A DNA stretch of 64,000 nt from positions 639,944 through 703,943 of the forward strand of contig NC_011685.1 of assembly GCF_000150955.2 (NCBI RefSeq), in the 5' to 3' direction. A program made the position numbers and the translations under genes. Below, one piece after another: positions 20,822 to 51,398 of the stretch. The notes under the pieces are model-generated. The model had not been told where the DNA came from. It was given only the letters and a program-made list of their open reading frames with translations, and searched no databases. This DNA comes from Phaeodactylum tricornutum CCAP 1055/1 (taxonomy: Eukaryota > Bacillariophyta > Bacillariophyceae > Surirellales > Neidiaceae). How positions within the stretch are numbered: the stretch's first letter is position 1; the number at the start of each line of letters is the position of its first letter.

Positions 20822-22551
20822 CTAGTAGCCCCACCAGCCAGATTCAGATCGACAAGAGCTGTGGAGTCCACGAGACGGTGTCCAGGATCGGCTACAGCTC
20901 ATCGTGTCACAACAGATGCTGGACCTTTCGCAGAGTTCACCTGCAGGCAAACACTGCGGAGCAACCGGGGGCTGCGTGGGAGCTGGAACAGGGGCACGAG
21001 TGGGCTCTCGGGTCCGAGGAGTGACAGGGGCTCGCGTTAGGACGCGAGTAGGTCGTCGGGTAGGAGCAGGGACGGGGGCTCGAGTCGGGGCCCGAGTGGG
21101 TCGTCGGGTGGGAGCTCGAGTCGGGGCCCGTGTAGGCCGACGGGTGGGAGCAGGGACCGGGGCGCGAGTCGGGGCACGTGTAGGCCGACGGGTGGGAGCA
21201 GGGACTGGGGCGCGAGTCGGGGCACGCGTCGGCCGTCGGGTTGGAGCAGGAACTGGGGCACGAGTGGGTGGGCGAGTAGGTGCTCTGACCGGTGCATCGG
21301 TATCGTCTTGGGGAGTGTTCCTAGCGGGTAATCGGGAAGTGCGCACAAGTCGGTTGGGGGATCCTTCCAAGTTGCCTAGTTGGCCAGTCCGCGCATCGGA
21401 GGTGATAGAATTGGTGTTTCTGCCTGACTCTAAATACAAGGCGGCAACGCCGGCTACGTGCGGTGATGCCATGGACGTACCCGACTTCGTGCTCGTGCCA
21501 CCAGTTTTGGCTGTCGACAGGATCCCGGTCCCTGGGGCAAAAATATCGACGCAGCTGCCCCAATTAGACCAGCTTGTACGCTGATTGCGATCATTAATGG
21601 CACCGACTACCAATGCACCGCTAGCTGATGCAGGAGAGGCGTTGCAGGCATCGGCGCCACTGTTTCCAGCGGCCACTACGACGACGACGCCTTGGGCTGC
21701 GGCGGAGTCAATAGCGCTGTTTAGCCTCGCGAATACGCCACCCGCGAGACTCATATTAATGACGATTCTGCGACTTCGGTTATTTTCTTTGATTTTGGTA
21801 ACGTAGTCAACGCCTGCAATCACGCCGCTGTAGGACCCGCTACCCCTTTGGTTCAGCACTTTAACGTCGTGCAGCGACACCTGCTTGGCCACACCGTAGG
21901 TTTTCGAACCAACGGTTCCGGCCACATGTGTACCGTGTCCGTTCAGATCCGACCCACATGCTACAAGAGGAAAAACGCGCACGTAAGACTTCGGATTTTT
22001 GTGGGGGAGAAAGGATTTCTCTAGATGCGGAATGCAAACTTACATTCTCCAGTGTAGGAGACGCAGCTCCTCACTCGACCTTCAAAATCGGGATGATTTG
22101 CTTGAATGCCAGTGTCAACGATGTACACATCGACACCTCGCCCCGTGTATGTGTATGTATAGCGATTGTCGTCGGATCCGTCGACGAGATCGAGACCCCA
22201 AGTCGGATTGTTTTGGATAGCCTCTATTTCAACGATACCATCTTCCGACACAGATAGCACGTCGTCCATGTTGAGTATGAAATTCAACACCATATCGGGG
22301 ACATCCTTGACAGCAAATCCTTTCATGGCGTAGTCGTAAGTCTCAATTATGTTCTTGCGAAACGTTCGTTTGAGGACTTTTTCGGCAAATCCTTGTGAAT
22401 CGGGAATGCTCGGATCCAGCTCAATCACGTACTGCCCTGGGATCACTTGGCTTTGCGGCAGACGTTGGAGCTTGCGGTGCGTGAGGACTTGGGCCGAGAG
22501 CGAAGGCATCCACCCAAAAGTCAAAAGGGTGATGGCGTTAAGATACTTCAT
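20822..22551 (-). CDS. Subtilase A: secreted proteinase K-like protease with Pro/Thr linker and cystine module
   Basis: Exons 22551-22044 and 21960-20822, intron 83 nt (GTAAGT..TGTAG); product 548 residues. Signal peptide 1-20, then an inhibitor-I9 type propeptide and an S8 catalytic domain with triad Asp146 (V-D-T-G), His178 (G-H-G-T-H) and Ser332 (G-T-S-M-A-S-P), plus oxyanion Asn269. About 120 residues of Pro/Thr/Arg repeats of the R-A-P-T-R-A-P-V-P-A-P-T type follow, the longest simple-repeat linker in the array. The end is a six-cysteine module, C-x6-C-x5-CC-x4-C-x13-C, finishing W-W-G-Y. Likely a secreted or wall-associated protease with a tethered module. The W-W-G ending is shared only with copy G at the other edge of the array. 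Confidence 0.9.
21020..21290 (-). repeat. Coding minisatellite of the Pro/Thr linker of subtilase A
   Basis: Imperfect tandem repeats, read on the minus strand as alternating R-A-P-T, R-R-P-T and A-P-V-P-A-P-T units, within the linker of subtilase A. The opposite strand gives a long meaningless frame rich in R-V-G-A and R-V-G-R. Unit number probably varies by slippage. Confidence 0.8.
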
Positions 22552-23922
22552 ACTTGTTGATGTGTTTTTCCTGGTTTGCTGTTTCGGTAGAAAAAAATTG
22601 TGAATGCCTAAGCCTCCCTATGACTTTTTGCTTCGAAAGTGTGGCGACACGTTGTGGCTGTAACATTCCCTACCAAGTCCACGGGCCTATGGGTATCCCT
22701 GCCTTGGCAGTATTCTACTTACCAAAAACGACTTGGGCCACATTTTAAATGCGCTCAATCTGAAGTCAACGACATTTTACGTAGAAGTGATACATTTTAT
22801 TTGGCGGCATTTTTCATCATTTTTGGGATCAAGAAAACCCTCGGAGTTGTATCCAGGTTTGTGTAGACATAACCGCATCACAGGTAGATCAAATTTTGAG
22901 AAGATTGGAGTGAATGTCAAATTTTACACATATGCAATAAGGGGGTTATCACATTCGACGAAAACCATGTAGCTCTATGCATTTGCTTGGACCACTTTCA
23001 ATGCTTGGTGTTGTAGATATGTGTACCAGATGAGACGTCACCTACTTGGCTCTAGACGTACTCATCTGCAATAGGCGGTCATACACTTAGGCCCAGGAAG
23101 AGCAATAGTAGGCCCAAGGAACTGGCATTAGGCGTATAAAAACTCTTGCTTTTCTATGACGGTATGGCTCGCTTGCAGGTGGAGTATCAGAGACGTTTAT
23201 GTGAGTATGTCATGGCGTTTGCAGTAAGTGTAAGTGATATTCCAATCCTTTTGCGCCTCCGTTCGTTGCGGAATGACATCTGTCGAAACAGCTCCCCTCC
23301 AACACGTTTGGATCGAAGTTCCGCCTCCGTCGGCATCCAGCTCTTTGGAGCGGAAAAGTTGAGCCGGTGGGAGTCTCCAACCGGCAAGGCAGCCGCTTCT
23401 GCCGCAGCATAGCGCCCTTTCCCACCACTCCATCGCTTAGCGCCCCTTCCGAGGTGAGTTGTCGCTAGACACGTGAACAGCCACGCCTCGATTCGAGCGG
23501 ACGTAGTATGGAGCGGACTCTAAAGCATTAAGAACTAACTGTAACAACATATAAGCGAGTTTGTGTCCCAAAAGATGCGACACGCCGAGCCAACGCGAGG
23601 GAGAACCGTCGCTCGTGGGTTCCAATTGACCGCAGATAGTTTCCAGTAGGATTTGGATATACCAAACTCATCGGAAATGTACCGTCGCAAACGCTCGACT
23701 CTACGTAAAGTTAGTAAAAGGGAGTACCAAGCATTCTCAGCTTTATGTAAGGATATCCCCTTTTTTTTAGACCTTGAAACAGATTTTCGGTGTATGTTGT
23801 GTTCTAGAGTGTATACCGGGAAAGGTATGACCGAGGAAGGTAGCTTTCCCAGTCAGTCCGAGGAACAAATGTAATTCTGGATTGAAGTACGACCGATTTG
23901 CAGCTTGAGCGAACTAACGAGC
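22552..23922. other. Intergenic region, possible decayed gene remnant
   Basis: About 1.37 kb between subtilases A and B. No intact gene. On the minus strand, frames at 23625-23437 (H-L-L-G-H-K-L-A-Y-M-L-L-Q) and 23387-23187 have protein-like composition and could be exons or a relic of one gene, but no frame-preserving splice could be fixed and no family is recognised. Confidence 0.3.
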
Positions 23923-25193
23923 TCATGGCAATTGGGAAGTACGCACGCGCCGGTTGAGGGCCCCTCTAACGTCGGTGAGCTGGCTCGTCACGGCATCGGG
24001 GACAATAAAGCCGGTTCTTCGACCCGCCTGTAAGTACAGCGCGGCGACACCGGCCACGTGCGGAGAAGCCATAGACGTACCCGACTTCGTGCTCGTACCA
24101 CCGGTTCGAGACAACGACACAATCCCGGATCCTGGTGCAAAGATATTCACGCAGCGACCCCAGTTGGACCAGCTCGAACGGCGGTTGTTGCGGTCAATGG
24201 ACCCAACCGCCAATGCTCCCGACGCAGACGCAGGAGAAAAGTTGCAGGCATTTTGGTTGCTGTTTCCGGCAGCAACCACCACCATCACGCCTGAAGCCGC
24301 CGCAGCATTGATCGCTTTGTTGAGTGAAATATTCCGACCTCCTCCAAGACTCATGTTGAGTACCATTTTGCGTCTGGGATTTCCCCTCTTGATACGGGCG
24401 ACGTAGTCAATGCCAGCAATAACTCCGCTGTAGGATCCACTTCCCCGTCGATTGAGCACTTTGACGTCGTGTAGGAAAACTTTCTTGGCAACGCCGTATG
24501 TTTTCGAACCGACAGTTCCTGCCACATGGGTACCATGTCCATTGAGATCGGATCCACAGGCTGCGAAAATTGGATGGAACTTTTGGTGAGCATCCTACCT
24601 ATATTCCGAAGACTGATCATTGCTGCTTTGTGTCAAGAAGTAGTAATCGTGACAGTCCTTGTGCGACGCAAACCCACGAACTTACCTTCTCCAGTATAGG
24701 AGACGCAACTCTTCACCCGACGTTCAAAGTCACGATGATTTGCTTGAATTCCAGTGTCGAGAATGTACACGTGCACGCCTCGTCCCGTATACGTGTAAGT
24801 GTAGCGGTTGTTATCCTGTCCGTCCGTGATGTCGAGACCCCACGTAGGATTCATCTGCACAGCATCCGCCTCCACGACAGAGTCTTCGGTCATCGAAATC
24901 ACGTCGTCCATATTGAGCATAAAGTTCAGCAACATGTCGGGGACGTCTTTGACGGCGAATCCTTTCAAGGCGTAGTCGTAGGTCTCAATGAGGTTGTTTT
25001 GGAACGCCCGTTTGAGGACTTGGGTGGCAAAGCCCCTTGAATCCGGAATACTCGGATCCAATTCGATGATGTACTGTCCCTGAATCGCGTTGCCTCCCGC
25101 TGCACGGTTGAGCTTGCGGTGTGAGGCCAAACCGGCCGAAGCCGAAGGCAGCAACACTAAAGTCAACATGAAACTAAGCTGAAGAAGTTTCAT
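23923..25193 (-). CDS. Subtilase B: catalytic-domain-only copy
   Basis: Exons 25193-24686 and 24560-23923, intron 125 nt, product 381 residues. The start is set at M-K-L-L-Q-L-S-F, which gives a proper signal peptide; the frame is open further upstream. Propeptide, D-T-G, G-H-G-T-H and G-T-S-M-A-S-P motifs are intact. Unlike every other copy it stops right after the catalytic domain (R-T-S-Q-L-P), with no Pro/Thr linker and no cystine module; no remnant of them was seen past the stop. It would be a freely soluble secreted protease of the same family, either trimmed from or ancestral to the tailed form. Confidence 0.88.
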
Positions 25194-25860: not shown

Positions 25861-27409
25861 TTAGCGACAAGCCAAGCGACGTCCTTGCCGAGGTGACCAG
25901 GTTTGAAAGCATCTCAACCCTCTACAACATCGCCGAAATCGATTGCAAACTTGACCTCTAGACCGACACTGAGGTGGCGGCCGAGGGACTGGAGCTTTGG
26001 TTGGAGCGCGAGTAGGTTTTTTGGTTGGAGCGCGAGAAGGTTTCCTGGTTGGAATGAGAGTAGGTTGTGGCACTGGAGCTTTGGTGGGGGAAGAAACGGG
26101 AGCCTTGGTCGGAGCCAACGAATCTGAATCTTCCAGAGGCACGGACTCAACAGTTGGGACATGGGTGGGCGCCCGAGATGGCGTTTGTTCAGAAGGTAGT
26201 GCAGATGTACTCAATAGTTTGTTGTGGGAACCTCGAGTACGGGTCACCCGGTTCTTCAAAGCATCGGAAGTTATAGTATTGGGATTTCTACCCGCTTGCA
26301 AGTACAATGCTGCAACACCGGCCACGTGTGGAGCAGCCATGGACGTACCCGACTTTGTGGTTACGCCACCGGTTCGCGACAGCGACAGGATCCCGGATCC
26401 AGCTGCAAAGATGTCGACACAACTACCCCAGTTGGACCAACTCGAACGGCGGTTGTTGCTATCAATAGAACCAACTACCAGCGCTCCCGACGCAGACGCA
26501 GGAGAGTAATTACAGGCATTGTGATTGCTATTTCCGGCAGCGACAACTACTACCACGCCGGAAGCCGCTGCAGAATCGAGTGCGTTGTTCAAGGCCGTAC
26601 TACGGCCTCCCCCCAGACTCATGTTGAGGACTGTTTTGCGACTGGGATCTGTCTTCTTGATCTGGGCCACGTAGTCGATGCCAGCAATAACTCCGCTGAA
26701 GGATCCACTCCCCCGCCGGTCAAGTACCTTGACATCGTGCAGCGACACCTTCTTGGCCACACCGTAGGTTTTTGACCCGACAGTTCCGGCCACGTGGGTA
26801 CCGTGCCCATTCAAATCAGATCCACACACTGAGCAAAGAAGAAATGATGGTGTGGGTTGTTGCATTGCGGACAACATGAAGAACAATCAGCATGCGATAA
26901 TTATATTTACCTTCTCCGGTATAGGAGACGCAACTCTCTACACGGCCTTGGAATTCAGGATGATTCGCTTGAATTCCGGTGTCAAGAATGTACGCATTCA
27001 CGCCTTGCCCTGTATACGCGTAAGTGTACAGGCTGTCATCTTCTCCGTCCGTGATGTCGAGGCCCCATGTCGGATTTATCTGCACTGCGTCAGCCTCGAC
27101 AATGGCGTCCTCTGACACCGAGAGTACATCGTCCATATTCAGCATGAAGTTCACTAGCATGTCGGGGAGATCCTTAACAGCAAATCCTTTCAACGCGTAG
27201 TCGTAGGTCTCGATAAGGTTGTTCCGGAAGGCTCGTTTGAGGATGCGGGTTGCAAAACCCTTTGCATCCGGGATGCTGGGGTCTAACTCGATGATGTACT
27301 GTCCTGGAATTGAACGGCCCGTTAATGCACGATTAAGCTTGCGATGCGAACCCAAAGCGGCCGAAACCAAAGGCATAAAAAGAAAAATCAAGAAGAGGGG
27401 AAGATTCAT
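25861..27409 (-). CDS. Subtilase C: secreted protease with linker and cystine module
   Basis: Exons 27409-26911 and 26828-25861, intron 82 nt (GTAAAT donor, CAG acceptor); product 488 residues. Signal peptide, propeptide and complete catalytic triad motifs (L-D-T-G, G-H-G-T-H, G-T-S-M-A-A-P). The linker (about 90 residues) contains a distinctive acidic segment (E-S-V-P-L-E-D-S-D) before K-A-P-V and R-K-P-S units, then the cystine module with the inner-type core F-R-R-CC. Copy F matches this gene closely over the exon 2 body and the linker, including the acidic segment, so the two are recent duplicates or have been homogenised. Confidence 0.9.
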
Positions 27410-28101: not shown

Positions 28102-28250
28102 TAGAAAAACCCTACCACAAGCATATCGGGGTTCGTTATCCCTTTATCTTGGGTTTATGCTTATATGTCTTTGTTTTTCGTCTTTTTATTGTATCTACAA
28201 TCCTTTGGTCCCACAGACACGTTTTAGCCCGTTATCGTTGCAGTTTTCTA
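28102..28250 (+). repeat. 5' LTR of element 1
   Basis: 149-bp direct repeat, begins TAGAAAAACC and ends GCAGTTTTCTA. Matches 34006-34154 with about six substitutions and 59729-59877 with somewhat more. Confidence 0.9.
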
Positions 28251-28970
28251 GTTTATCAGACCCAGTGTTCTAAGCTGAGGTAGCGGGATCAAAGGTAGGG
28301 TGATTCGTTGTGATTTGAGTGTTTGAGTGATCGCCAAGTCCGATAGTGCCTGGGGAGGTAAAGCTAAAATACCTGGCTCTTCATGTTGTTGTTGAGTTGC
28401 CGAAGCCTGCAGAGGCCTGGAATATACTGCCAGTTTCTCGTAATGGTCCATGTGGTAGACATGTTGATCGGTAACTGGGTTTCGTATCCGTTTAACGGTC
28501 TCAAACGAGGCAAAATCTCCATGGTGGGACGCTTCCATGGATCTCTTCATCTACCAAAGAAGGTGCATTGCACAAGAATTTATTGTTTGCTAAAAGCTCG
28601 GATCCAAGCTTTATCCATGTGTGGATGATAAGTAGTTTGTTTGCATGGAACATTTACTTATACAGCAACAATTATCGGACTTGTACCAAACGGTAATCGT
28701 GGATCCTCCACTCTGATAGAAATCAGCCAAATATCTCGTATTATGGGTTGCGACATGAAAATGGTGTTCGTCGCGTTTTATTGAAATGGTTCTCAAACGG
28801 TATTCAGTATCGATATCACTTATATGGTATTTATGTGGTGTTCACATGTGATGTTATCAGTGATCAATAATTCTCGTGGTCACATGGTGCAGAAAGAACA
28901 CTGAATGTTGTCAAAGCAGCTTACGAAGTTTTATGAAATTTAAGACAGGTGAAGAAGACGAAAGTTCACC

Positions 28971-30175
28971 ATGGCAGCTGCTTTAGCTCAAGTTTGAAAT
29001 GCTTTACAAGCAATTGGCATTGTTGATGGCAAACAACGCGATGCTATTACGGATTTGATTACGTCTATGGATGTTTTCGAGATCGCAACGGATGATTTCA
29101 TCAAGGATATGTGTAAGAACATCCGTCGTCCCGGGGGTACGCTTCCGAATCCTAATGCAGAACAACCTGGAGCCCCGGTCATGATTCCTTGCAATGGTGT
29201 AGCTATTTCACCCACTGCGGAGGAGCGTCTTGTGTTGTTGGCATATTATGTTCGTCACCTCAAGCGCACTTCTCGGCCTTATCCGGCTCAGTTCAATGCG
29301 GCGCGTATTTTCTCGATGATCAAAATCAAGAAGCGTGAGAAGGAAGACAAAGAGTTAGCGAAAGACCTTGTTGCTCCTGGACAAATTGAAGACCTGAAGA
29401 AGATCCGTGATGCAATTGAAAATATTGCGGAATATTTGCTCCAAATTCGAGGAACAACGGGAGTTCCATTGGCTTATGTCATTCGTGAAGACGAAGAAGT
29501 TCCTGAAGGTCCGGATAACGACTATCAAGATGCGGTTGAAGAGATGATAGCGCAATGTCCTCATGAAGAAGAGTCCTATGCAGCAGATCATGCTCAAGTG
29601 TGGTCAATTATTCGCGTTTGTACTCATAGAGGTCCTACTTGGAGCTGGGTGTCGGCTTATGCTCGAGCTCGTAATGGTCGTGCGGCTTGATTTGCACTTC
29701 GCTCACATTATTTGGGACCGACTAATCAGTCGAAGATTATGACGCGTGCTGAAGGTGATCTTGAGTCAAAGTTCTACAACGGAGAGCGTCGTAACTTTAC
29801 TTTCGAACATTTTGCTGAGATTCATCAGCAAGCTCATACAGATCTGGAAGAGTTTGGAGAGCCATTGACAGAGGCTGCAAAAGTTCGGAAATTTTTGAAA
29901 CGGATTCAGGCATTGTTTCTCAATTCTGCAATTGCCACTGTTCGTGTTAACCCATCTTTGAAAAATGATTTTGAAGCCACAGTGAGTAAGAACAGAATCA
30001 AGCTCAGCTTCGGAATATTTCGTCAGGTCGATCTGGTCGCGGTCAAGGACGAGGTAGAGGATCAGGTTGTGGTAATAAAGGTCGCGGTGGACGCGGTGAT
30101 AAAGGTGTTTTCAACAAAGGTTCTACCAAGGGCATGGTGGATAAGTATTATACCTTTGATGAATACAAGAGTATG
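28971..30175 (+). pseudogene. gag of element 1 (broken)
   Basis: Capsid-like polyprotein region starting at ATG 28971. It has a TGA at 28995 after eight codons, another TGA at 29688-29690, and loses frame near 30000, where the original coding becomes Gly/Arg-rich (repeated G-R-G units) instead of a zinc knuckle. The body is helical, with K-R-E-K-E-D-K-E-L-type charged helices. The related copy at 61344 lacks the first nonsense codon. Confidence 0.75.
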
Positions 30176-33100
30176 AATGCTGAACAGAAGCGTCACTTGC
30201 ATACGTTATGTCAAGAAGCTGGTGGTAAACGCAATGCTTCTACTGTTGATTCTCAAGAAAAGGAGGATGACAAGAAATCGAAGACAAGTCGTGATGATAG
30301 GAGCTTGCTTACTTCGAAGTCGTCGGCAGGTCGAAATATGTCGCAGAGAAGTTCAAACATGTCGGTGGTATCAACACGTTCTATCTCTATACAGTCACTC
30401 AAGAGTGCATTTATATCACACGCGGAGTTAGATTCTCACGCGGATACTTGTTGCGTTGGGAAGAACGCTTATATATTTCACGAAACCTCTCATACGGTTG
30501 ATGTTTCTACATTTTTATCTACATTGGGACAAGCCCGGTCTGTACCAATTGTCTCTGCTGCTCTTGCATATGATCATCCTTACACATATGAGACTTTTAT
30601 TTTAATTATTCATCAGGCCTTGCACTTTCCTACCATGGAACATAATTTGTTAAATCCAAATCCGCTCCGGTTAAACAATGTGCAGGTCTATGATTGCCCA
30701 AGAGTTTTACTTGAAAATCCCACGGATTTGTCACATTTGATTTATTTTCCGAAGGAGAATCTTAAATTGCATCTGCAATCAGATGGTGTGATTTCGTATT
30801 TGCCAGTGCGAAAACCGTCGCCGGAGGAGTTTCGAAACTTTCACAAGTTGACTCTCATGTATGACAATCCCATTGAAGTATACCGATAGCAAAGGTATTT
30901 TAACAATCCGGTCGCGCAAACATTCAAATGATTTCATCACACGAAAGTACAGTATCAGTTGTGCTGTCTAGTATTTCGGTGTCACTTGATGAACAGCATT
31001 TTGTCGAAGCACTCGAAAAGACATGTCTTGTGAGTGTTGCTCAGTGTCAAATTACAGGTACAGAGTTACTCCGGAAGAGTTAGCCAGACGTCGGAATATC
31101 GGTTTATCTGTAGCGAAACGAACTTTATTGGCTACAACTTAGAGAGGAGTCAAGGATATTGCCAGTCGGACTCTAACACAGAGAGTCAAGCCAACTACCA
31201 GTCAGCTCAGATACCGACATCTCCGAACAAGTGTGTATATGGATACAATGTTTTCTTATGTAATGTGCGCATGACATTGGTGATGTTATGTGTGCGCGTA
31301 AACTTGTTTGAAGTGGTCAAGTGGTATCTCAAACTTCTTACTCGCCACTTTCTACAACAACTGATCTTAATTGCAGGGAGGTGCAATTAGACAAGTCCTC
31401 ATTTGACGCAACTTTGAGCTATAATAACTGTGATGATGCTGTTGCCCCTGTGTTTCCTGAAGAGTATAATGTATTTTGCGCTTATTCAGATGATTTGACA
31501 GGGGACAAGCCGACAATGCCTCAAGCAGACGAGTTAGATCACGAAGCTTTTGATGAATACCTTGATGCTCAAGTTGCGTTACCGTACAAAGACATTGCTA
31601 CCACTGGAACAGTCATTGCGCGTAAAAAGGATCGCGATGGTAACATGGTAGGGAAATCACATCCCAATCCTGTTTTGGATACGAGAGTTATGGAAGTCTA
31701 GTTCCCAGACGGTAATGTGCAGGAATTTGCTGCTAACGTTATTGCGGAACACTTATATTTGCAGGTGGATGATGAAGGACGCCGGTTTCGAATAGTAGAT
31801 GAGATCATTGATCATAAGATGGATGGATCGGCAGTCGCACCTGACGATATGTATTATACGGACAAGCATGGTGTGAAACGCATAAGACGAACCACTAAAG
31901 GCTGGGTGTTGTTATTGCAATGGAAGGACGGATCTACAACTTGGTTTCCTCTTAAAGATCTGAAGGAATTGAATCCAATTGAAGTCGCCGAATATGCCGT
32001 TGCTAACAAACTGCTTCATGAGCCAGCTTTTGCTTGGTGGGTACCGGACGTATTGCAGAAACGTGATTGTATTATTTCAGCGGTAAAGACGAGATACCTT
32101 AAAAGGACTCACAAGTTTGGTATTTGTATGCCGAAATCGGTCAAGCAAGCTCTCGAGATTGACCGAGATACTAACACTTCATTGTGGTCGGATGCGATCA
32201 AGAAGGAAATGACAAATGTTATGCCAGCATTTAAAATTCTCGATCAGGATGCTCCTAAACCAGTTGCTCATACATGGATACCATGTCACATGATATTTGA
32301 TATCAAAATGGATTTTACTCGCAAAGCCAGATTCGTCGCCGGGGGACATGTTACAGATCCGCCGAGTTTGATTACATATGCCAGTGTTGTTTCGCGCGAT
32401 AGTGTTCGCATTGCTTTACTCATCGCATCTTTGAATTCATTGGATATACTTGGTGCCAATGCGCAGAATGCTTATTTGAATGCACCAGTTCGCGAAAAGG
32501 TATATACAACATGTGGTCCAGAGTTCGGAAAGTCAATGGAAGGTCGTTATGCACTTATTGTTCGTGCGTTATATGGTTTGAAGTCAAGTGGGGCAGCATG
32601 GCGTGCTCACTTAGCTGCGACAATGGAGGAGTTGCATTTTATCTCTTGTCTTGCAGATCCAGATGTTTGGCTTAGACCAGCTCAGAAACACGATGGTACG
32701 AATTACTATGAGTATGTGCTTATTTATACCAATGATTTCGTATGTATCAGTACAGATCCGAAGATGATTCTGGATTCGATTGGTATGCATTTTAAACTCA
32801 AGCCTGAATCAATTAAGACGCCCGAGGTATATTTGGGAGCAAATCTTGGACGTTTTACGCTTCCCGATAATCCATCAAAACAGAATTGGTCGATGAGTTC
32901 CACGAATTATGTGAAACAAGCAGTGGCAAATGTTGAAAAGGATTTGGATGAAGTTGGAAACGTTTATCTACAAAGATTACGTCACCTATGTTGTCAAATT
33001 ATCGACCGGAACTCGATGTTTCCCCTGTGTTGGATGCGGAACGTGCTAACTATTTCCAGTCACAGATAGGAGTTTTGAGATGGGCAGTTCAAATTGGTCG

Positions 33101-33809: not shown

Positions 33810-34005
33810 TTCAAGTTACAAGAAGGGTTTGCCGACTTTCCCGTTCTCAACAGGTTCAATGTTGGGACAAATTGCATTTGCATTATATTTGTCATTGCAG
33901 GCAGTGTCGAAGTTTTATTTTTATTTGGTTCCCTATTTTTCCCATTGTGGTTTTGCGGGGACACATTTCGCCAAGTTTATGTTCATCGTCTCAATGTGAG
34001 GGGAC

Positions 34006-38121: not shown

Positions 38122-39180
38122 ATGTCGACCTCGGCTCATTTCAAACTGAGCGACTTTCCTCACACAGTCCTCGACCCGATCGCCACCCTCACCGTCCCAC
38201 CGACCTACGCGACCATCAAGCGTGCCCAACGCCAGCTCATGACTAACGCCGCCGCCATTCCCACACTCAACGGAGGTGGCGCCCACGGCCATATGGCCTT
38301 GACCCTGACCGCCCTTGCCTACACCGACATCAGCGACGTCCCGTTCGTCATTCCCGTCGCCCCTCCGGCCAATCCGCCTCCCGGCGCCACGCAACCACAA
38401 ATCACCGAAAACAACCGCATTCATCAACGCGACGCCAACATCTACAACCTTTATGTCGCCGTCAACAACGCGCTTCGCCAGCAACTTCTCGACGCAGTCC
38501 CCCGCATTTATGTCAGCGCCCTCGCCCATTCCATGTTCGAGTTTAGCAACGTCACTTGCCTCGACTTGCTCTCGCACCTCTGGACCAAATACGGTACCAT
38601 CAAGCCCGCCGAGCTCCAGAAAAATTTCCAGTCCATGTACACCCCTTGGAACACGACCGAACCGATTGAATCAGTTTTTCTTCAGCTCGACGAGGCCATC
38701 GCTTTCTCTGTCGACGGTAACGACCCCATCTCGGAAGCTGCTGCTGTTCGCGCTGGCTACGAAGTCATTGCGCACTCGGGCCTGCTCCTCCCAGACTGCA
38801 AGGAATGGCGCAAATTGCCTACTGCTGCTCACACCCTTGCCCATTTCCAGCAGCACTTTTCCCTTGCCGACGAAGACCGGCGCCTCACGGCCACCACCGG
38901 TTCCCTCGGCTACGCCAACGTGCTTGCTGCTGCCCCCTCTCTCGCTCCTGCCACGACCTCCGACGCTCTCAGCCTTCCTTTCTCTGCGCTCTCTGTGTCC
39001 CAGACTTCTGTCTCTTCGCCGGACATGACCTATTGCTGGACCCGTGTTACCAGCAAAAACCGGCGCCATACGAGCGCCACGTGCAAGAACAAGGCCCCTG
39101 GCCATCGCGACGACGCGACCGCCACCAACACTCTCGGCGGATCCACCAAGGTTTGGACCGCTCCCCAGCCCCCTGAATAG
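38122..39180 (+). CDS. gag of element 2
   Basis: 352 residues from the ATG at 38122; the frame is open further upstream into the LTR region. A helical capsid-like body is followed by a C-terminal Cys/His cluster (Y-C-W-T, then H-T-S-A-T-C and G-H) that looks like the atypical zinc knuckle of diatom copia elements. It ends in a TAG at 39178-39180, and pol continues in the same frame, so pol could be made by stop-codon readthrough or the TAG could be a later mutation. Confidence 0.8.
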   Translation: MSTSAHFKLSDFPHTVLDPIATLTVPPTYATIKRAQRQLMTNAAAIPTLNGGGAHGHMALTLTALAYTDISDVPFVIPVAPPANPPPGATQPQITENNRIHQRDANIYNLYVAVNNALRQQLLDAVPRIYVSALAHSMFEFSNVTCLDLLSHLWTKYGTIKPAELQKNFQSMYTPWNTTEPIESVFLQLDEAIAFSVDGNDPISEAAAVRAGYEVIAHSGLLLPDCKEWRKLPTAAHTLAHFQQHFSLADEDRRLTATTGSLGYANVLAAAPSLAPATTSDALSLPFSALSVSQTSVSSPDMTYCWTRVTSKNRRHTSATCKNKAPGHRDDATATNTLGGSTKVWTAPQPPE

Positions 39181-39201
39181 GAAAGAGGGACGGCTACGCC
39201 G

Positions 39202-42200
39202 ATGGTTAACTCTAATAATACCGATTATTTAAATCATATTACTAGTCTTAATTCATCTGTAGTCCCCTCCCCGCCTAGTCCCCATACCTCGGCCATTGCC
39301 GACACCGGATGCACGGGCCATTACATCACCGTCAACTGCCCCCACACCCACAAACGTCCTGCAAGCCCCAGCCTTGCCGTCCGTGTCCCTAACGGCGCCG
39401 TCCTCCACTCAAGCCACATTGCCACCCTGGCCCTCCCTGGCTTTTCCCCTTCTGCTTGCCAGGCCCACATCTTCCCGGGGCTTACCTCGCACCCACTCAT
39501 TTCGATTGGACAACTTTGTGACGACGGCTGCACTGCCACTTTCTCAGCCACTCGCCTCGAGATCCACCGCGACACTACACTACTCCTCTCCGGCACTCGT
39601 GCACCCACTACCGGCCTCTGGCACCTTGATCTTACCCCTGCCAAGCCTCCTGCCACAGCCCACGCTCTTGTTCCAAACACTCCCCTTGCTGACCGCGTCG
39701 CTTTTATTCATGCCTCGCTCTTCTCCCCGGCTCTCTCCACATGGTGCCAGGCCCTCGACTCCGGCCATCTTGCAACCTTTCCCGAACTTTCCTCCCGCCA
39801 GGTCCGCAAATATCCACCTCATTCCCCCGCCATGGTCAAGGGCCACCTCGACCAACAACGCGCAAACCTTCGCTCCACCAAGCTTCCCCCTGTAGGTTCC
39901 CCCATCACGACGGAGCCCCCTGCCGCCGCTGTGCCCGACCTTGACCCTCCCGACGCCCACCCGGTCACACGCACACACCATGTCTTTGTTGCCCACCAAC
40001 GGGTCACCGGTCAGATCTACACGGACCAACCGGGCCGCTTCCTCACTCCCTCCAGTGCCGGCCACAACGATATGCTTGTTCTCTATGATTACGACAGCAA
40101 TGCTATCCACGTCGAACTCATGAAGAACAAGTCCGGCCCGAGATTCTAGCCGCCTATAAGCGCGCTCATGCTCTTTTCACCTAGCGCGGCCTTCGTCCCC
40201 AACTCTAGCGTCTTGACAACGAAGCCTCTGCAGCCCTCCAGTCCTTCATGTCCTCCGAGCACGTGGACTTTCAGCTGGCACCCTCCCCATCTACACCGTC
40301 GTAATGCAGCCGAACGGGCCATCCGCACCTTCAAGAACCACTTTATTGCTGGTCTCTGCACCACTAACCCGGATTTTCCCTTGCATCTTTGGGACCGCCT
40401 CCTCCCACAGGCCCTCATTACCCTCAATCTTCTTCGTCGCTCCCGCATCAATCCCAAGTTGTCCGCCCACGCACAACTTCACGGTGCCTTCGACTACAAC
40501 CGCACCCCGCTCGCTCCTCCTGGCACTCGCGTCTTAGTTCATGTCAAGCCCGCTGTTCGCGAAACCTGGGCCCCCCATGCTGTTGAAGGTTGGTATCTCG
40601 GCCCCGCTCTCAACCATTATCGCTGCCATCGCGTCTGGGTCACGGAAACACGTGCCGAACGTGTTGCTGACACCCTTTCCTGGTTCCCGACCCGCATTCC
40701 CATGCCCGCCGCTTCGTCCACCGACCGCGCCCTGGCCGCCGCCCGTGACCTCGTCCACGCCCTCCAGAATCCTTCCCCTGCGTCTCCGTTCGCCCCCCTC
40801 GATGCCACCCAGCACCAGGCACTCACAGATCTTGCCACCCTCTTTGCCACTGTGGCCGCCCCAGCCGACGACGTCCCTGCACCCGCTCCCGTGCCTCCGG
40901 TCCGGCCCCCTGCCCCAGCAACTCACCTTGCTCAGGTCCGTTTTGCCGTTCCGCTTGTCACGGCCGAACATGCCCCGGCACTTCCGAGGTTGCCCATTCC
41001 GGCCCCAGCACTTCCGAGGGTGCCCACCCTGGCCACCTATCACTCTCGCACCGGCAACCCCGGCCGTCGCCGCCGCACAGCACGCAAACAACCGGCAACC
41101 CCAACCCTAGTTCCGGCGCATCCCCACAACACCCGCACCCGACCCTTTCTTGTCCCGGCTTCCGCCAACGCCGTTGTTGACCCCGCAACCGGCACCTCCT
41201 TGGAATATCGCCACCTGCGCTCCGGCCCCGACGCTCCCGATTGGATTCGCGCCGCCGCCAACGAAATTGGACGGCTCACCCAAGGCAACCCGCCCCACAG
41301 TACCACCGGCAGCCACACCATGCACTTCATCGCGCATAATGCCATTCCTCCTGGTCGCAAGGCAACCTACTTGCGCATTGTCGCCAGCATTCGCCCCCAA
41401 AAGGCCGAACCCAAGCGCATCCGGTTCACCGTTGGTGGCAACCTAGTTCAGTACCCCGGAAAGGTTAGCACCCCAACTGCTGATATCACCACCGCCAAGA
41501 TCCTCTTCAATAGCGTCCTCTCCACGCCCGCCGCCAAGTTTATGTGTATTGACATCAAGGATTTCTATCTTGGCACCCCCATGGCTCGTTACGAATACAT
41601 GCGCATCCCGGTTCCTGACATTCCTCCCACCATCATGGCTCATTACCAGTTAGCTCCACTCATTCACAACAACTCTGTTACCGTCGAAATTCGCAAAGGT
41701 ATGTACGGCCTACCCCAAGCCGGCATTCTCGCCCACGACCGTCTAGTTGAACACCTTGCTGCCCACGGCTACGTTAAGACGAAGCATACCGCCGGCCTTT
41801 TTCGCCACGTCACACGCCCGATTCAGTTTACCCTAGTTGTGGACGACTTTGGAGTGAAATACACTGGCACCGAACACGCGCAACACCTTATCGACACTCT
41901 ACAAGCACTTTACACCATCACCATTGACTGGGACGGTACTCGTTATCTCGGACTTACACTTGCTTGGGATTATGAGCGTCGAACCCTCGACATGTCCATG
42001 CCCGACTACATCGACCAAGCCCTAACCCGCTTTCAACGATCGCCCCCTCCTACGTCTCAACATGCACCTCACCCTTGGACCCCTCCAACTTATGGCGTTG
42101 CAACTCAACTCACACCAGTCCCTGATACCACTGAACCTCTCAATGCATCCGACAAGACCCACCTGCAAGAAATCATCGGAACCCTACTTTACTACGCTAG

Positions 42201-43056
42201 GGCTGTCGACTCGACCATTCTCGTGGCTCTCGGCACTCCGGCCTCGGCACAGTCAACTGCAACCCAAGCGACCCTTCACGCCGCCGAACATTTACTTGAC
42301 TACTGTGCCACTAACCCACATGCTACGGTACGTTTTCAGGCTAGCGACATGTGTTTACACATTCATAGTGACGCTTCCTACCTTTCCGAGTCGAAAGCCC
42401 GTTCTCGTGCTGCAGGTCATTTTTTCCTCAGCAGTCGACCCCAAGATCCCAATGCTGCTCCCGCTCCGACTGATCCGGACCCTCCCAATAATGGTGCTAT
42501 TCATACGCATAGTTCCATCATGTCCGTTGTTCTTTCCTCGGCCACCGAAGCAGAACTCGGTGCCCTCTTTTACAACGCCAAGGACGCCACCGCTTTCCGG
42601 GTCACTCTCGACGAGCTTGGCCACAATCAGCCACCTACCCCTATTCAGACCGATAACGCTTGTGCCTCCGGCATTGCCAATGAAACCATCAAGCAACGAC
42701 GTTCTAAAGCCATTGACATGCGTTTCTACTGGGTTAAAGACCGCGTCGAGCAAAAACAGTTTATTATTTACTGGCAACCCGGCCTCACGAATTTGGCCGA
42801 CTATTTCTCCAAGCATCATTCTCCCGCACATCATCGCAAAATGCGCTCGCACTACCTTTTTGAACAGTCACCAACCAATGACATAGCAACTTCTCATTTG
42901 CAGCAAGGGTGTGTTGATCCAACTCCTGGTAAGGACAACGTCTCACCAGAAGTTCAATTGCCTACTGCTAAACGCCAAGTCACTTCCGTCCCACACACAA
43001 CAAATCACAGCCCCACAGTCCCTACAAATATCCAAGAGTACAGTGTAGACTCATAA
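39202..43056 (+). pseudogene. pol of element 2, nearly intact
   Basis: Protease with A-D-T-G-C-T-G near 39300, integrase, RT with V-V-D-D (V-D-D codons at 41839-41847) and RNase H with H-S-D-A-S-Y and intact acidic residues, ending inside the 3' LTR. The only visible damage is in the integrase: coding leaves the frame near 40137 and returns near 40270, with TAG codons at 40182 and 40206 in the true frame (each one change from CAG) and a TAG at 40147-40149 in the main frame. The third acidic integrase residue (A-E-R-A) lies after the damage. RT and RNase H look functional. Confidence 0.8.
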
Positions 43057-43117
43057 TCTTCGTAGTTCATCGTTTTCCTCAACTGTGATCTCCATCGTCG
43101 TTTTGTGTTCTTCAATA
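42912..43117 (+). repeat. 3' LTR of element 2
   Basis: 206-bp partner of 37841-38046, about 97.6 percent identical by eye. It supplies the last codons of the pol frame and is followed by the AGACA target duplication. Confidence 0.93.
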
Positions 43118-44176
43118 AGACATCCATACCATATTCCAAAATTCGAGTATAAATCAGCCTTGTATTCCTTGCCTGCAAGCCAGACCGTAGACATGTGGCT
43201 ACATCTGATGGCGGAGTCGATCTGTTAGGCTTGGACAGCATAGCCCGGCTCGGGATGTGAAAGTATTTGAACTGAAGAAGAATACTTCTAAGTCTGTTAA
43301 GATTGCTGCCCTGACTAGATGCATATTTACTGCTGGCAATATCAAATTATTGTAATCAGAGATCAGGCTTGCTTATCCATTTTCTGCTTTCGCGAGCTTC
43401 CCAGATTTGTCGTTTGATGTGTTGTGGCATTCATTGTTCTTTCTTCCAACAGAAGCATTAAATTGATGACTGTCTTTGAAACTCCCTTGCAGTCGCATGG
43501 ACTAGACAGTTTCTGCAGCATGTCGAAGGAAAAGGCTTCGAAGTAGTGGTCACCGACTTCTTTGGCTAGACCGGCAGTAGGCTGGGAAAAGAAGTCAGCG
43601 GCGTTCACTAGTCGAAGAAAAATGACTTGGGTCGAATTATAAATATGCTACTGGCCAACTTCTCTCTAATTGTTGATATAAGTGTTTTTCTGGCGGTATT
43701 TCCAAATTTTTGGTGATCAAGCAATCTCCCGGGATTTTGAGAAACGCAAGTCTGTCAGCTGCTGGGCCGCCGGAGGAATTTACTGCGCAACAGTAACCCG
43801 TTGGGGCAAAGACTGTTGATCGAGCTTTGACCGTCGCGCAACACTTCGATCACCATTTCACAGACCATCCTGTTCTTTCCGTTGGTAGTATTTCATGGGA
43901 TGATCCCTAATACTGCTGGATATTCTGCATGGTCCCGTTTCAATAAGCTACCAACACGGTACCGATAATCATAGAATCAGTTTCTATAACGACGTTTGCG
44001 CAATACTAGCGCTTATGTACTACGGAAAGACAATCACTTCTCAGAAGGGGTACCTCCAGGGAGGCGCCCATTCCGCGCGAAATCTTGCAAAAGTGTTTGG
44101 ATATGGCCTACCCGGCTTAATGTGAATGCCGGACTGGGCGGATAGTGGAGTGGGCGACCGTCTTGGAAGCCCATCC
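43118..44176. other. Intergenic region downstream of subtilase E
   Basis: About 1.06 kb after element 2 (starting with its right target duplication). A minus-strand frame at 43608-43363 (81 codons) has no recognisable domain. No supportable gene. Confidence 0.4.
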
Positions 44177-45929
44177 TCACCAGCGAGGACGACACGCTCG
44201 GTGTCGGCCACGCTGTGGTGACCACGATCGAAGACATCTCAATCCTCTACAGCATCGCCGGAAAGCAGTACACACCTGTCCACTAGACTGGCATTGTGGC
44301 AATACCGGAGAAGATGTTGGTGGAGTCACTGAAGCACCAGTTGGTGCCTTGGTCGGAGCACGAGTATTGCTTGGAGCACTGCTCGGCGCCTTGGTCGGAG
44401 CACGAGTTGGTGGAGGCACTGGAGCGTTGGTCGGAAAAGAAGCTGGAGTCTTTGTCGGAGGCGACGAATCTGGCTCAATCAAAGGTATGGCGTCGATAGT
44501 GGGAAGGTTGGGAACGGCGTCTTCCGAGGGTTCATTTGAAGGCGACGGCGTCGGGCGACCGGTAGGTTCACGAGTGGGTTGGAGGGTTGGTGCGGGAGTG
44601 GGTTGACGTGTGGGTGCACGACTGGGCGACTGGGTTGGTAGAGCTACCAGCGGCAGCTTTGCAGTGCTTATTCGGAGGTTGGGGGAGCCTTCCAGATTCG
44701 AAGAGAGCTGATCCTCCAACCCATCGGACGTAATGAAATCGGTGCTTTTACGCGCTTGCAAGTACAGTGCGGCGACACCAGCTACGTGTGGGGAGGCCAT
44801 GGACGTGCCCCACTTTGTAGACGTGCCACTGTTTGGGGACAGCGATAGAATCCCGGAACCTGGCGCAAAGATGTCGACACAGCTGCCCCAATTAGACCAA
44901 ACCGAACGTTGGTTACTGTTGTTGATGGAACCAACCACTAATGCTCTCTCTGCAGATGCAGGAGAGGAATTGCAGGCATCTTCGTTACTGTTTCCGGCAG
45001 CGACTACCACTACCACGCCTGAATCTGCTGCGGAATTGATTGCGCTGTTTAAGGCTGGACTAAACCCTCCCCCGAGACTCAAATTCATAACAATGTTGCG
45101 GCTGGGATCTGCATTATTGATCTGGGCTACGTAGTCGATGCCAGCAATAACTCCGACGTAGGATCCACTACCATTTTGGTTGAGCACCTTGACGTCGTGC
45201 AAAGATGCTTTCTTGGCTACACCGTATGTTTTCGAACCGACAGTTCCGGTCACATGGGTACCGTGCCCGTTGAGATCGGATCCGCACTCTACACAAAGGA
45301 GAGACCAACGTTTGTGAGTTGACTACCTTTTCGTCATTTTCTTTTTTGACGTAGACGGTGGTAAGAATCTAAGTGAATCATCAAATACAGCGACATTCGC
45401 CACTGACGCAAAACGCACCTTCTCCACTGTAGGAGACGCAGCTCTCGACGCGACCTTCAAGGTCCGGATGATTTGCTTGAATACCCGTGTCAAGAACGTA
45501 AACATCGACGCCTTGTCCCGTAAACGCGTAACTGTAGAGGTTGTCAGCTTGTCCATCAATGATGTCGAGGCCCCACGTAGGATCTGTTTGTACCGTTTCC
45601 GCCTTCACAACCGCATCCTCCGATACAGAGATTACGTCATCCATGTTGAGAATGAAGTGCAACAACATATCGGGGAGATCCTTGACAGCAAACCCTTTCA
45701 TGGCATAGTCGTAGGTCGCGATGATGTTATTTCGGAACGCGCGTTTGAGTATGTGGGTGGCAAACCCTCTTGAATTTGGGATGTTTGAATCCAATGCGAT
45801 GATATATTGTCCTGGGATTGCTTCACTCCCTATAGCTCGGTTGAGTTTTCGGTGAGAGCCCAAACTTGCCGAAGCTGAAGGCAGCAACAGAAAAGTCAAC
45901 ATGACGACAATCAGGTAAAAGAACTCCAT
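44177..45929 (-). CDS. Subtilase E: secreted protease with linker and cystine module
   Basis: Exons 45929-45419 and 45288-44177, intron 130 nt (GTGCGT donor); product 540 residues. I start at M-E-F-F-Y-L-I-V-V, which leaves a clean signal peptide. Propeptide and triad are intact (L-D-T-G, G-H-G-T-H, G-T-S-M-A-S-P, the last preceded by an unusual K-W). The linker is long (about 120 residues) and compositionally mixed, with an acidic Pro-rich middle (P-S-E-D-A-V-P) between two Thr/Pro blocks. The cystine module is of the inner F-R-R-CC type with the C-R-P-R-W end shared with copy D. Confidence 0.9.
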
Positions 45930-47028: not shown

Positions 47029-48657
47029 TTAGCGAGAACGACACGTTTGGCGTAGTCCTCGGCCGCGAAGCCAGCGTCTAACGCATCTCAATCCTCTACA
47101 GCATCGACGAAAACGGTTGCAGCCTTGGCCTCTAGACCGACACTGAGGTGGCGGCCGAGGGACTGGAGCTTTGGTTGGAGCGCGAGTAGGTTTCCTGGTT
47201 GGAGCGCGAGTAGGTTTCCTGGTTGGAGCGCGAGTAGGTTTCCTGGTTGGAATGAGAGTAGGTGGTGGCACTGGAGCTTTGGCGGGGGAAGAAACGGGAG
47301 CTTTGGTCGGAGCCAACGAATCTGAATCTTCCAGAGGCACGGACTCAACAGTTGGGACCTGGGTGGGCGCCCGAGATGGCCTTTGTTCAGAAGGTAGTGC
47401 AGATGTACTCACTAGTTTGTTGTCGGAACCTCGAGTACGGGTCACCCGGTTCTTCAAAGCATCGGAAGTGATAGTATTGGGATTTCTACCCACTTGCAAG
47501 TACAATGCTGCGACACCGGCCACGTGTGGAGCAGCCATGGACGTACCCGACTTTGTGGTTACGCCACCGGTTCGAGACAACGACAGGATCCCGGATCCAG
47601 CTGCAAAGATGTCGACACAACTACCCCAATTGGACCAACTCGAACGACGGTTGTTGCGTTCAATAGAACCAACTACCAGCGCTCCCGACGCAGACGCGGG
47701 AGAGTAATTACAGGCATTACGATTGCTATTTCCGGCAGCGACAACAACTACCACTCCTGAAGTCGCTGCAGAATTGACTGCGTTGTTCAAGGCCGTACTG
47801 CGGCCTCCCCCCAGACTCATGTTGAGGACTGTTTTGCGACTGGGATCGGTCTTCTTGATCTGGGCCACGTAGTCGATGCCAGCAATAACTCCGCTGAAGG
47901 ATCCACTCCCCCGCCGGTCAAGTACCTTGACATCGTGCAGAGACACCTTCTTGGCCACACCGTAGGTTTTTGACCCGACAGTTCCGGCCACATGGGTACC
48001 ATGCCCATTCAAATCTGACCCACAGGCTGCGAAAGGAAGAGACAAGTATTCATGAGGTTACTATATTTTCTCTCATCTATAAACGTATTTTTGGAAAATC
48101 ACGACGATATAGCTACCTCATGAACAAAAGAAACACACCATCTTACCTTCATTAGTATATGATACGCAGCTATCGACACGACCTTCAAGGTCGGGATGAT
48201 TTGCTTGTATTCCAGTGTCAAGAACGTAAACATCTACTCCTTGTCCTGTGTATGTGTAAGTGAAGCGGTTATCGTCTTTACCGTCTGTGATGTCGAGGCC
48301 CCATGGAGGATTTGTCTGTACTGTATCCGCCTCGACAACCGCGTCCTCTGATACTGAGAGAACATCATCCATATTCAGAATGACGTTCAACAACATCTCG
48401 GGGAGATCCTTGACAGCAAATCCCTTCAAGGCGTAGTCGTAGGTCTCGAGGACGTTGTTTCGGAATGCGCGTTTTAGGACGCGGGCAGCGAAGCTATTCG
48501 AATCTGGGATACTTGGATCCAGCTCGATGATGTACTGCCCCCGTATGGCTTGACTGCCCACAGCACGTTTTAGTTTGCGGTGCGAGCCTAAACTAGCCGA
48601 GGCTAAAGCTGGCCAAAACAGTAAAGTCAACATGACGAGCTGAAAAAGAAAGTTCAT
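47029..48657 (-). CDS. Subtilase F: secreted protease with linker and cystine module
   Basis: Exons 48657-48147 and 48026-47029, intron 120 nt; product 502 residues starting M-N-F-L-F-Q-L. Signal peptide, propeptide and catalytic motifs are complete. Exon 2 is nearly the same as that of copy C, including the linker acidic segment, but it has three R-K-P-T-R-A-P-T units where C has fewer, and a more Arg-rich end to the cystine module (R-R-W-L-R-G-R-G). Exon 1 is less similar to C, so homogenisation may have been limited to exon 2. Confidence 0.9.
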
Positions 48658-49939: not shown

Positions 49940-51398
49940 TTAGAAACCCCACCAGCTTGATGATGATCGACAAGACTTGAAGACTCCTGTACTTGGAGTC
50001 CAGGATCGACTGCAGGTCTGCCCGTCGCAACAGTCAGCTGAGCTGCTGCATAAGCCTCCAGCACCAATACACAAATTTGGATTTTCTTGTGGAACCGTAA
50101 TCACCACCGGCGCGGTAGTGGGTTTTCGTGTTGGAGCTCGTGTGGGTCTCAGCGTTGGGGCAGGAGTCGGGGCCTGGGTAATTGACTTCGAAAGTTGAGA
50201 GGTGGTTGCCAACTTATTGGGAGAGCCTGATAAGTTGGAGAGTTTACCAGCAACAGCGTCAGTCTGGATATTTGATGCTGACCTTCCAGCTTCGAGATAC
50301 AATGCAGCCACACCGGCAACGTGTGGGGATGCCATTGAAGTCCCAGCCTTTGTGGAAGTTCCTCCTGTAGTCGACAGTGACACGATACCAACACCAGGGG
50401 CAAATATATCAACGCAACTGCCCCAGTTTGAGAAGACGGTACGACCATTTGAGCCGTTCATTGCGCCGACCGCAAGCGCACCTGCAGCGGAAGATGGTGA
50501 AAAGTTGCAAGCATCTGCATTCGCGTTTCCAGCTGCTACCACGACGACGATTCCCAGATTGGCAGCAGAATTGATGGCGTTGTCCAGAGCAGAATTTGTT
50601 CCACCTGAAAGGCTCATATTGATGACCATCTTCTTGCTAGTGTTCTCTCTTTTAATCTTGGATATATGATCGATGGCAGCAATCACCCCACTGTACGTTC
50701 CTCTACCCATCGCGTTGAGTACTTTGACGTCGTGAAGTGTGACTTCTTTCGCAACTCCGTAGGTTTTAGAACCGACAGTACCAGCCACATGAGTGCCATG
50801 GCCACTGCCATCCGATCCGCAAGCTTTTCCAAAAATAAGGGATATGGTTAGGTACACACTTCTGACTGGAAACTGCCAAAACAGATACTTGCAGCTTACC
50901 CTCATTGGCGAAGGAAATACAGGAAGCGACACGGCCCTCAAAATCGCTGTGAGCGGCGATCCCAGTATCAAGGATGTAAGCGTCGACGCCTTTTCCAGTA
51001 AAACTGTAGGTATATTTGTCATCGTCAGAGCCATCTATGACATCTAGACCCCAAGTTGGACCGGCTTGCACCTGGTCCATTTCGACAAAGCCATCTTCAG
51101 ATACGGACAGAACATCATCAAGGTTGAGTAGAAAGTCCAGGACCTCGTCTGGAAGATCCTTCACGGCAAAACCTTTCAGGGCAAAATCGTAGTTCTCAAT
51201 AACATTGGATCGTAAGGAGCGCTGCAATACTCTTGCCGTAAATCCTCTCGAATCTCCAACGCTGGAGTCGAGTTCGATCACATACTGACCAGGAATTGCT
51301 TCACCTTGTTGGACCTTGTTCAGCTTGCGATGAGACTCAACTCTGGCCGAAGCCGACAGGAGCAAAATCGTCAAGAAGGCAAGAGACGTGAGATTCAT
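49940..51398 (-). CDS. Subtilase G: secreted protease with short linker and cystine module
   Basis: Exons 51398-50900 and 50823-49940, intron 76 nt (the shortest in the family); product 460 residues. Start at M-N-L-T-S-L-A-F gives the signal peptide. It is the most divergent copy: D-G-S-G-H-G-T-H around the catalytic His, and K-A-G-T-S-M-A-S-P at the Ser. All triad motifs are intact. The linker is only about 40 residues. The cystine module keeps the exact spacing C-x6-C-x5-CC-x4-C-x13-C but lacks F-R-R and ends W-W-G-F, like copy A at the opposite edge of the array. The two edge copies therefore share a tail type distinct from the inner ones. Confidence 0.9.

What the first reader, a model, noticed from the sequence alone, without database searches (positions are those of the whole stretch)
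20822..51398. Seven-gene tandem array of secreted subtilases with one fixed intron
Seven genes (A-G), all on the minus strand over 30 kb, share signal peptide, propeptide, S8 catalytic domain and a single phase-1 intron immediately before the C-G-S-D block of the catalytic His motif. Intron length varies from 76 to 155 nt while position does not. All seven triads are intact by eye, so this is an active local expansion rather than a pseudogene graveyard. Proteinase K-like subtilases in arrays are known in fungi and oomycetes; such an array in this type of alga would be notable.
Basis: partly seen in the sequence, partly recalled or inferred. Interest (0 to 1): 0.75.

Follow-up and report, generated by a model that had tools for sequence, protein, structure and literature searches.

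The report
Diatom protease gene cluster, probably known
A diatom, very probably Phaeodactylum tricornutum, carries seven old, intact copies of a gene for a probably secreted protein-cutting enzyme side by side; the cluster has probably been reported before, and the less expected details are that six copies end in a small six-cysteine, probably knotted tail and that two copies have exchanged the exon coding for most of the enzyme.

Summary
In detail: seven minus-strand proteinase-K-like subtilase genes, each with one phase-1 GT-AG intron of 76-155 nt just before C-G-S-D..HGTH, motifs intact, no further copy found in the window. A published Surcouf LTR primer of Phaeodactylum tricornutum matches the window 20 of 20, and a 2018 paper reports eight P. 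[quoted passage not shown] It is not a recent expansion: outside tracts shared by two pairs, synonymous divergence is 0.56 to saturated and flanks are unalike. The recent event is gene conversion: exon 2 of C and F is 95.7% identical (dS 0.12), exon 1 as diverged as other pairs. Two LTR elements account for most of the two long gaps. Six of seven proteins end in a Pro/Thr-rich linker and a six-cysteine domain modelled as a cystine-knot-like fold; copy B lacks both. Likely function, inferred: secreted zymogens with a surface-binding tail. A recent Deinococcus-Thermus origin is not supported by my small tree.

The parts
20822..22551 (-). Subtilase A, 548 aa; exon 1 22551-22044, intron 83 nt, exon 2 21960-20822; 124-aa linker and six-Cys C-terminal domain
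   Evidence: PF00082 and PT repeat
23923..25193 (-). Subtilase B, 381 aa; exon 1 25193-24686, intron 125 nt, exon 2 24560-23923; stops at the end of the catalytic domain, no linker or C-terminal domain (ATGs further upstream exist)
25861..27409 (-). Subtilase C, 488 aa; exon 1 27409-26911, intron 82 nt, exon 2 26828-25861
35429..37179 (-). Subtilase D, 531 aa; exon 1 37179-36672, intron 155 nt, exon 2 36516-35429
44177..45929 (-). Subtilase E, 540 aa; exon 1 45929-45419, intron 130 nt, exon 2 45288-44177 (an ATG two codons upstream at 45935 is an alternative start)
47029..48657 (-). Subtilase F, 502 aa; exon 1 48657-48147, intron 120 nt, exon 2 48026-47029
49940..51398 (-). Subtilase G, 460 aa, the most divergent copy; exon 1 51398-50900, intron 76 nt, exon 2 50823-49940
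25948..26828 (-). Converted tract in copy C (ends approximate, 60-base windows), 90-98% identical to copy F
47120..48026 (-). Matching tract in copy F (lower end approximate)
35398..35617 (-). 3' end of D, 86% identical to E 44146-44365: a second shared tract
44146..44365 (-). Matching 3' tract of E
49943..50080 (-). Six-cysteine C-terminal domain of G with 3 residues before it, modelled (pLDDT 81.4); equivalents end A, C, D, E and F
28102..34166 (+). Decayed Copia-type LTR element between C and D: repeats 28102-28260 and 34006-34166, 94.4% identical; RVT_2 in ORF 31702-33069
37841..43117 (+). LTR element, Copia-like, between D and E: LTRs 37841-38046 and 42912-43117, 97.6% identical, 5-bp target duplication AGACA
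62636..62655 (+). Exact match to the published P. tricornutum Surcouf LTR primer Scf-Rev, used to name the organism

Best explanation
This is an old tandem cluster of proteinase-K-type (S8A) subtilases of the diatom Phaeodactylum tricornutum or a very close relative, most likely the chromosome 17 subtilase cluster reported in 2018. One intron-bearing ancestor was duplicated in place; the copies diverged under purifying selection, two LTR retrotransposons spread the array apart, and gene conversion made exon 2 of copies C and F alike again. Each protein is probably a secreted pre-pro-enzyme: the signal peptide sends it out, the propeptide helps folding and inhibits until removed, and the Asp-His-Ser domain cuts proteins outside the cell. 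In six copies a Pro/Thr-rich linker carries a small six-cysteine domain, strongly basic in C-F and neutral in A and G, that probably holds the enzyme at a surface (cell wall, mucilage or bacterial cell); copy B lacks it. Shown: gene structure, family, low dN/dS, an exon-2 tract of recent identity. Modelled: the knot fold. Inferred: secretion, activation, surface binding and ecological role.
For: Gene models and motifs. Best solved relatives: proteinase K (E 3.8e-71) and aqualysin 1 (9.1e-70) for F; aqualysin 1 (8.6e-70) for C. Organism: Surcouf primer 20 of 20 bases; 0 of 100 shuffles had a match with up to 3 mismatches. Published cluster. NG86 dN/dS 0.09-0.22 in the 15 exon-2 catalytic pairs with measurable dS. 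Of those 15 pairs, 14 have dS 0.86-2.40 and C-F has 0.12; the 6 pairs with G are saturated. Conversion: the C-F score was reached in 0 of 2000 shuffles, 21 pairs tested; C-F flanks align at 30-56%; the exon-2 tree joins C+F at 100/100, the best exon-1 tree does not. Hydrophobic N-termini in 7 of 7 (10-residue Kyte-Doolittle maximum 1.59-3.21). Tail: six cysteines in one spacing in 6 of 6, pLDDT 81.4, Pfam Toxin_12 matched by 6 of 6 at E up to 10, for G above the cut-off (22.5 against 21 bits).
Against: No genome was held, so neither chromosome 17 nor the eighth copy was verified; the species rests on one 20-base primer, and of the ten primers compared nine did not match (best 3-7 mismatches), including three other Surcouf primers. 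No expression or splicing data. Signal peptides were judged by hydrophobicity only. Foldseek gave no hit at E 0.001 or better for the tail (best 0.12); pTM is 0.51; the best single stretch in the PDB profile search has E 0.0036, and cysteine spacing alone can give such matches. Exon 1 does not firmly exclude C+F as sisters (p-AU 0.105), so conversion rests on the tenfold difference in dS and the sharp edges. P. tricornutum is reported to be harmed by medium of an algicidal bacterium (PMC3587623, passages), which speaks against an effective defence role there. No binding partner is known.
Confidence: 0.75

Rival explanations
1. One reading: a recent, still growing expansion of subtilases in this lineage.
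For: Seven intact copies in 30 kb and one nearly identical exon pair.
Against: dS 0.82 or more in all 21 signal-plus-propeptide pairs, 0.56 or more in the short exon-1 catalytic part, 0.86 or more in 20 of 21 exon-2 catalytic pairs (saturated pairs counted); flanks unalike in the 6 pairs aligned.
Confidence: 0.08
2. Recent horizontal gain from the Deinococcus-Thermus group followed by duplication, as suggested in PMC5859163.
For: That paper's account (section 7); aqualysin 1 is among the best solved relatives and shares the N-A-C-N ... G-S-C-V-D cysteines (alignment).
Against: A clade of the array with aqualysin 1 and 8c4z alone is rejected (p-AU 0.003), with these plus 1s2n and 2b6n p-AU 0.021; with proteinase K it is not rejected (0.46). 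The array is a long branch of unresolved place, has an intron, and its copies are old. Limits: few Thermus-type and no other algal or oomycete sequences; groups named after the first tree was seen.
Confidence: 0.12
3. The C-terminal domain is a tethered inhibitor or a released peptide rather than an anchor.
For: Cystine-knot folds include protease inhibitors and toxins (general knowledge); 6 of 6 tails match Toxin_12 at E up to 10, best 0.00019.
Against: Basic charge in the tails of C-F (+9 to +14) and net positive linkers in 6 of 6 fit binding to anionic surfaces; B lacks the domain yet keeps its catalytic motifs.
Confidence: 0.2

Closest known systems
[quoted passage not shown] section 7 and three passages seen)
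   Same: Same species by the Surcouf primer match; clustered subtilases, 8 reported against 7 here
   Different: What I saw of the paper does not mention the intron, the linker and six-Cys domain, gene conversion or LTR insertions; it proposes a recent Deinococcus-Thermus origin, which my small tree does not support
Proteinase K / aqualysin-type S8A subtilases
   Same: Catalytic motifs and propeptide position; up to 243 bits to solved members
   Different: An extra cysteine pair eight residues apart before HGTH, on either side of the intron; linker and six-Cys tail; the cysteines of aqualysin's D-C-N-G-H-G-T-H and L-D-C-N-G-S are absent (alignments)
Inhibitor cystine knot (knottin) domains
   Same: C-x6-C-x5-CC-x4-C-x13-C spacing, beta hairpin in the model
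   Different: At the end of a protease, not a free peptide; no disulfides shown
Fungal cellulases with a linker and a small Cys-rich cellulose-binding module (recalled, no call)
   Same: Catalytic domain, Pro/Thr/Ser linker, small disulfide-rich module
   Different: Protease, not glycosidase; binding not shown

Membership tests
S8A proteinase-K-type subtilase | S8 domain with Asp-His-Ser and oxyanion Asn motifs | tested here: met
   PF00082 E 4.1e-43 to 3e-31 for 4 of 4 spliced proteins given; motifs in 7 of 7
S8A proteinase-K-type subtilase | I9-type propeptide | tested here: inconclusive
   PF05922 below cut-off in 3 of 5 submissions, not listed in 2; region conserved in 7 of 7
S8A proteinase-K-type subtilase | Secretion | tested here: inconclusive
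   Hydrophobic N-terminus in 7 of 7; no signal-peptide program, no proteome
S8A proteinase-K-type subtilase | Proteolytic activity | not testable with these tools
   Needs expressed protein
P. tricornutum chromosome 17 subtilase cluster | Species is P. tricornutum | tested here: met
   Exact 20-base match to the Surcouf LTR primer, none in 100 shuffles; one primer of ten, so a very close relative is not excluded
P. tricornutum chromosome 17 subtilase cluster | Window lies on chromosome 17 | not testable with these tools
   No genome held
Inhibitor cystine knot domain | Six cysteines in knottin-like spacing | tested here: met
   6 of 6 tails
Inhibitor cystine knot domain | Knot fold | tested here: inconclusive
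   Model pLDDT 81.4, pTM 0.51; Foldseek top hit 2h1z TM 0.59/0.67 but E 0.12
Copia LTR retrotransposon (37841-43117) | LTR pair with short target duplication | tested here: met
   LTRs 97.6%, AGACA on both sides
Copia LTR retrotransposon (37841-43117) | Copia reverse transcriptase | tested here: inconclusive
   RVT_2 18.0 bits against a cut-off of 31.6

The most novel reading that the evidence does not exclude
Diatoms evolved a family of knottin-tailed secreted proteases in which the catalytic exon is kept common between some copies by gene conversion while pro-region, tail and surface charge diversify copy by copy (catalytic net charge -11 to +19, tail 0 to +14), giving a set of enzymes aimed at different surfaces, for instance in defence against bacteria.
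Probability: 0.2. Interest if true: 0.55.

Novelty: already known. Interest (0 to 1): 0.3.

Why it matters
If the species is right, the cluster sits in a laboratory diatom, so copies can be deleted and their secretion followed. It offers a clean case of gene conversion limited to one exon between paralogues about 21 kb apart, and candidates for the extracellular proteases of diatoms: Chaetoceros didymus releases unidentified proteases when exposed to medium of an algicidal bacterium, and the same paper cites a protease-like hit among proteins induced in P. tricornutum by E. coli (PMC3587623, passages). None of those proteases is tied to these genes, and the same paper reports P. tricornutum as susceptible to that bacterium.

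Tried and rejected
Whole-genome search for further copies: no genome held. Protein scans of genome contigs (93 relatives, best 80 kept) and viral contigs (12) gave bacterial or viral records by their titles, no diatom; used only as outgroups. A search of papers for five peptide strings of the window found 0. Nine other searches gave one report of the cluster in the listings I saw, PMC5859163; several lists were cut (20 of 53; 15 of 4,547; 15 of 492), the library holds open papers only, and supplements were not read, so absence elsewhere is not shown. PMC13149256 (passages) concerns kexin-type families; PMC12533330 and PMC11992049 (passages) mention diatom subtilases in passing. The idea that the long gaps hide decayed subtilase copies was rejected: tblastn printed none, and both gaps hold LTR elements. 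The PtC34 primer match at 38161-38180 has 3 mismatches and 2 of 100 shuffles have one as good: not used. Other conversion candidates (C-D 23 of 2000, A-D 34 of 2000) do not survive correction for 21 pairs. A plastid address was set aside by eye: the residue after the likely cleavage site is not the Phe that I recall for diatom plastid signals.
Full report
What is there. Seven minus-strand genes, A to G, run from 51398 (ATG of G) to 20822 (stop of A). Each has two exons and a single GT-AG intron of 83, 125, 82, 155, 130, 120 and 76 nt (A to G), in phase 1, inside the codon just before C-G-S-D. The proteins are 548, 381, 488, 531, 540, 502 and 460 aa long without internal stops. The catalytic Asp, His and Ser motifs and the oxyanion Asn motif are present in 7 of 7. 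A tblastn search with all seven proteins at E 1e-3 printed no match outside the seven genes. Spacing between neighbours is about 2.2-2.8 kb, except 9.7 kb (C-D) and 8.8 kb (D-E).

What fills the gaps. Both long gaps hold LTR elements: 28102-34166 (repeats 94.4% identical, decayed, RVT_2 above its cut-off) and 37841-43117 (LTRs 97.6% identical, target duplication AGACA on both sides, RVT_2 below its cut-off). With lengths of 6.1 and 5.3 kb they account for most of the extra spacing. They lie between genes and leave the subtilases intact.

Which organism. No genome is held for the window. A paper on P. tricornutum retrotransposons prints primers (PMC2806351, passages). Of ten that I compared, one, the LTR primer Scf-Rev of the element Surcouf, matches at 62636-62655 in 20 of 20 bases; the other nine have 3 to 7 mismatches at best, including three other Surcouf primers, so at most part of such an element is here. 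For Scf-Rev with up to three mismatches, 0 of 100 shuffles had a match. I take the organism to be P. tricornutum or a very close relative.

Known already. The 2018 re-annotation of P. [quoted passage not shown] Seven here plus one elsewhere fits, though I could not place the window on a chromosome and the wording leaves open which genes are meant. In the listings of nine other searches I saw no other account; several lists were cut.

Age and selection. Of the 15 pairs without G, exon-2 catalytic dS is 0.86-2.40 in 14 and 0.12 in C-F; the 6 pairs with G are saturated. In the signal-plus-propeptide part dS is 0.82 or more in 21 of 21 pairs; in the short catalytic part of exon 1 (54 codons) the lowest are B-E 0.56 and B-C 0.65; in the tail the lowest is D-E 0.42. 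dN/dS is 0.09-0.22 in the 15 measurable exon-2 pairs; it is higher, up to 0.65, in some pairs of the short tail. Flanks align at the level of unrelated DNA in most windows of the six pairs examined. The array is old and kept by purifying selection, not a fresh expansion.

Conversion. C and F are 90-98% identical in every 60-base window of exon 2 from its start to about 25948 (two of these windows hold alignment gaps), while exon 1 (65-86%), intron (48-50%) and flanks (30-56%) are as diverged as in other pairs. A shuffling test over 21 pairs gave one clear case, C-F, 0 of 2000. The exon-2 tree joins C and F with 100/100; the exon-1 tree is unresolved and its best form does not join them, without rejecting it (p-AU 0.105). 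D and E share a second tract of 220 nt at the 3' end, 86% identical. The introns are probably too unlike to pair, which would stop a conversion tract at the exon edge (inference).

The tail. Six of seven proteins carry a linker of 39-124 residues with 40-48% Pro+Thr and a 35-43-residue domain with six cysteines spaced C-x6-C-x5-CC-x4-C-x13-C. The domain of G, with the other five as alignment, was modelled with pLDDT 81.4, pTM 0.51 and a beta hairpin. The best of 27 Foldseek hits in the PDB is a spider toxin (2h1z, TM 0.59/0.67, E 0.12); none reaches 0.001; Dickkopf chains and a tachystatin named as a cystine knot are also listed. The profile matches a tau-theraphotoxin chain at 8.4e-05 for the whole chain, 0.0036 for its best stretch. 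All six members match Pfam Toxin_12 at E up to 10, and G passes its cut-off. I read this as a knottin-type fold shared by shape and cysteine spacing, not as evidence of a toxin. The tails of C-F carry +9 to +14, those of A and G 0 and +1; the catalytic domains range from -11 (E) to +19 (B, the copy without a tail).

Origin. The array is one clade (100/99 and 100/100) on a long branch of unresolved place among proteinase-K-type enzymes. Joining it to aqualysin 1 and 8c4z alone is rejected (p-AU 0.003); joining it to proteinase K is not (0.46). With 16 of 92 fetched loci, five PDB chains and no other algal or oomycete sequence, this speaks against, but does not rule out, the published Deinococcus-Thermus origin.

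Mechanism. Most likely these are secreted zymogens that cut proteins outside the cell, the tail holding them at a surface. Family, integrity and low dN/dS are shown; the knot is modelled; secretion, activation, binding and purpose are inferred. Another diatom, Chaetoceros didymus, releases proteases on exposure to bacterial products (PMC3587623, passages): a precedent for a role, not evidence that these genes play it; the same paper reports P. tricornutum as susceptible.

Verdict.

Noticed in passing
window 62636-62655: Exact match to the published Surcouf LTR primer, in a repeat-rich stretch at the right end of the window.
   Followed up: yes
window 37978-43056: The LTR element between D and E is about 59-60% GC over 38-42 kb against about 41-54% in the rest of the window, and its frame is open except for two in-frame stops at 39178-39180 and 40147-40149.
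   Followed up: partly
window 61325-61546 and 28998-29690: Both stretches read as a similar peptide (ITSMDVFEIATDDFIKDMCKNIR in both), so the right end of the window holds a relative of the element between C and D.
   Followed up: no
window 62297-62409: A tandem repeat with a 10-base unit, eight overlapping registers listed.
   Followed up: no
L081 and L082 (2890 onward): Two viral contigs encode a proteinase-K-type subtilase fused to a long downstream protein in one open frame, possibly a phage structural protein (guess).
   Followed up: no
catalytic domains of A-G: A cysteine pair eight residues apart lies on either side of the intron in 7 of 7 copies; the five solved chains aligned lack it, so it may be an extra disulfide near the catalytic His.
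   Followed up: partly
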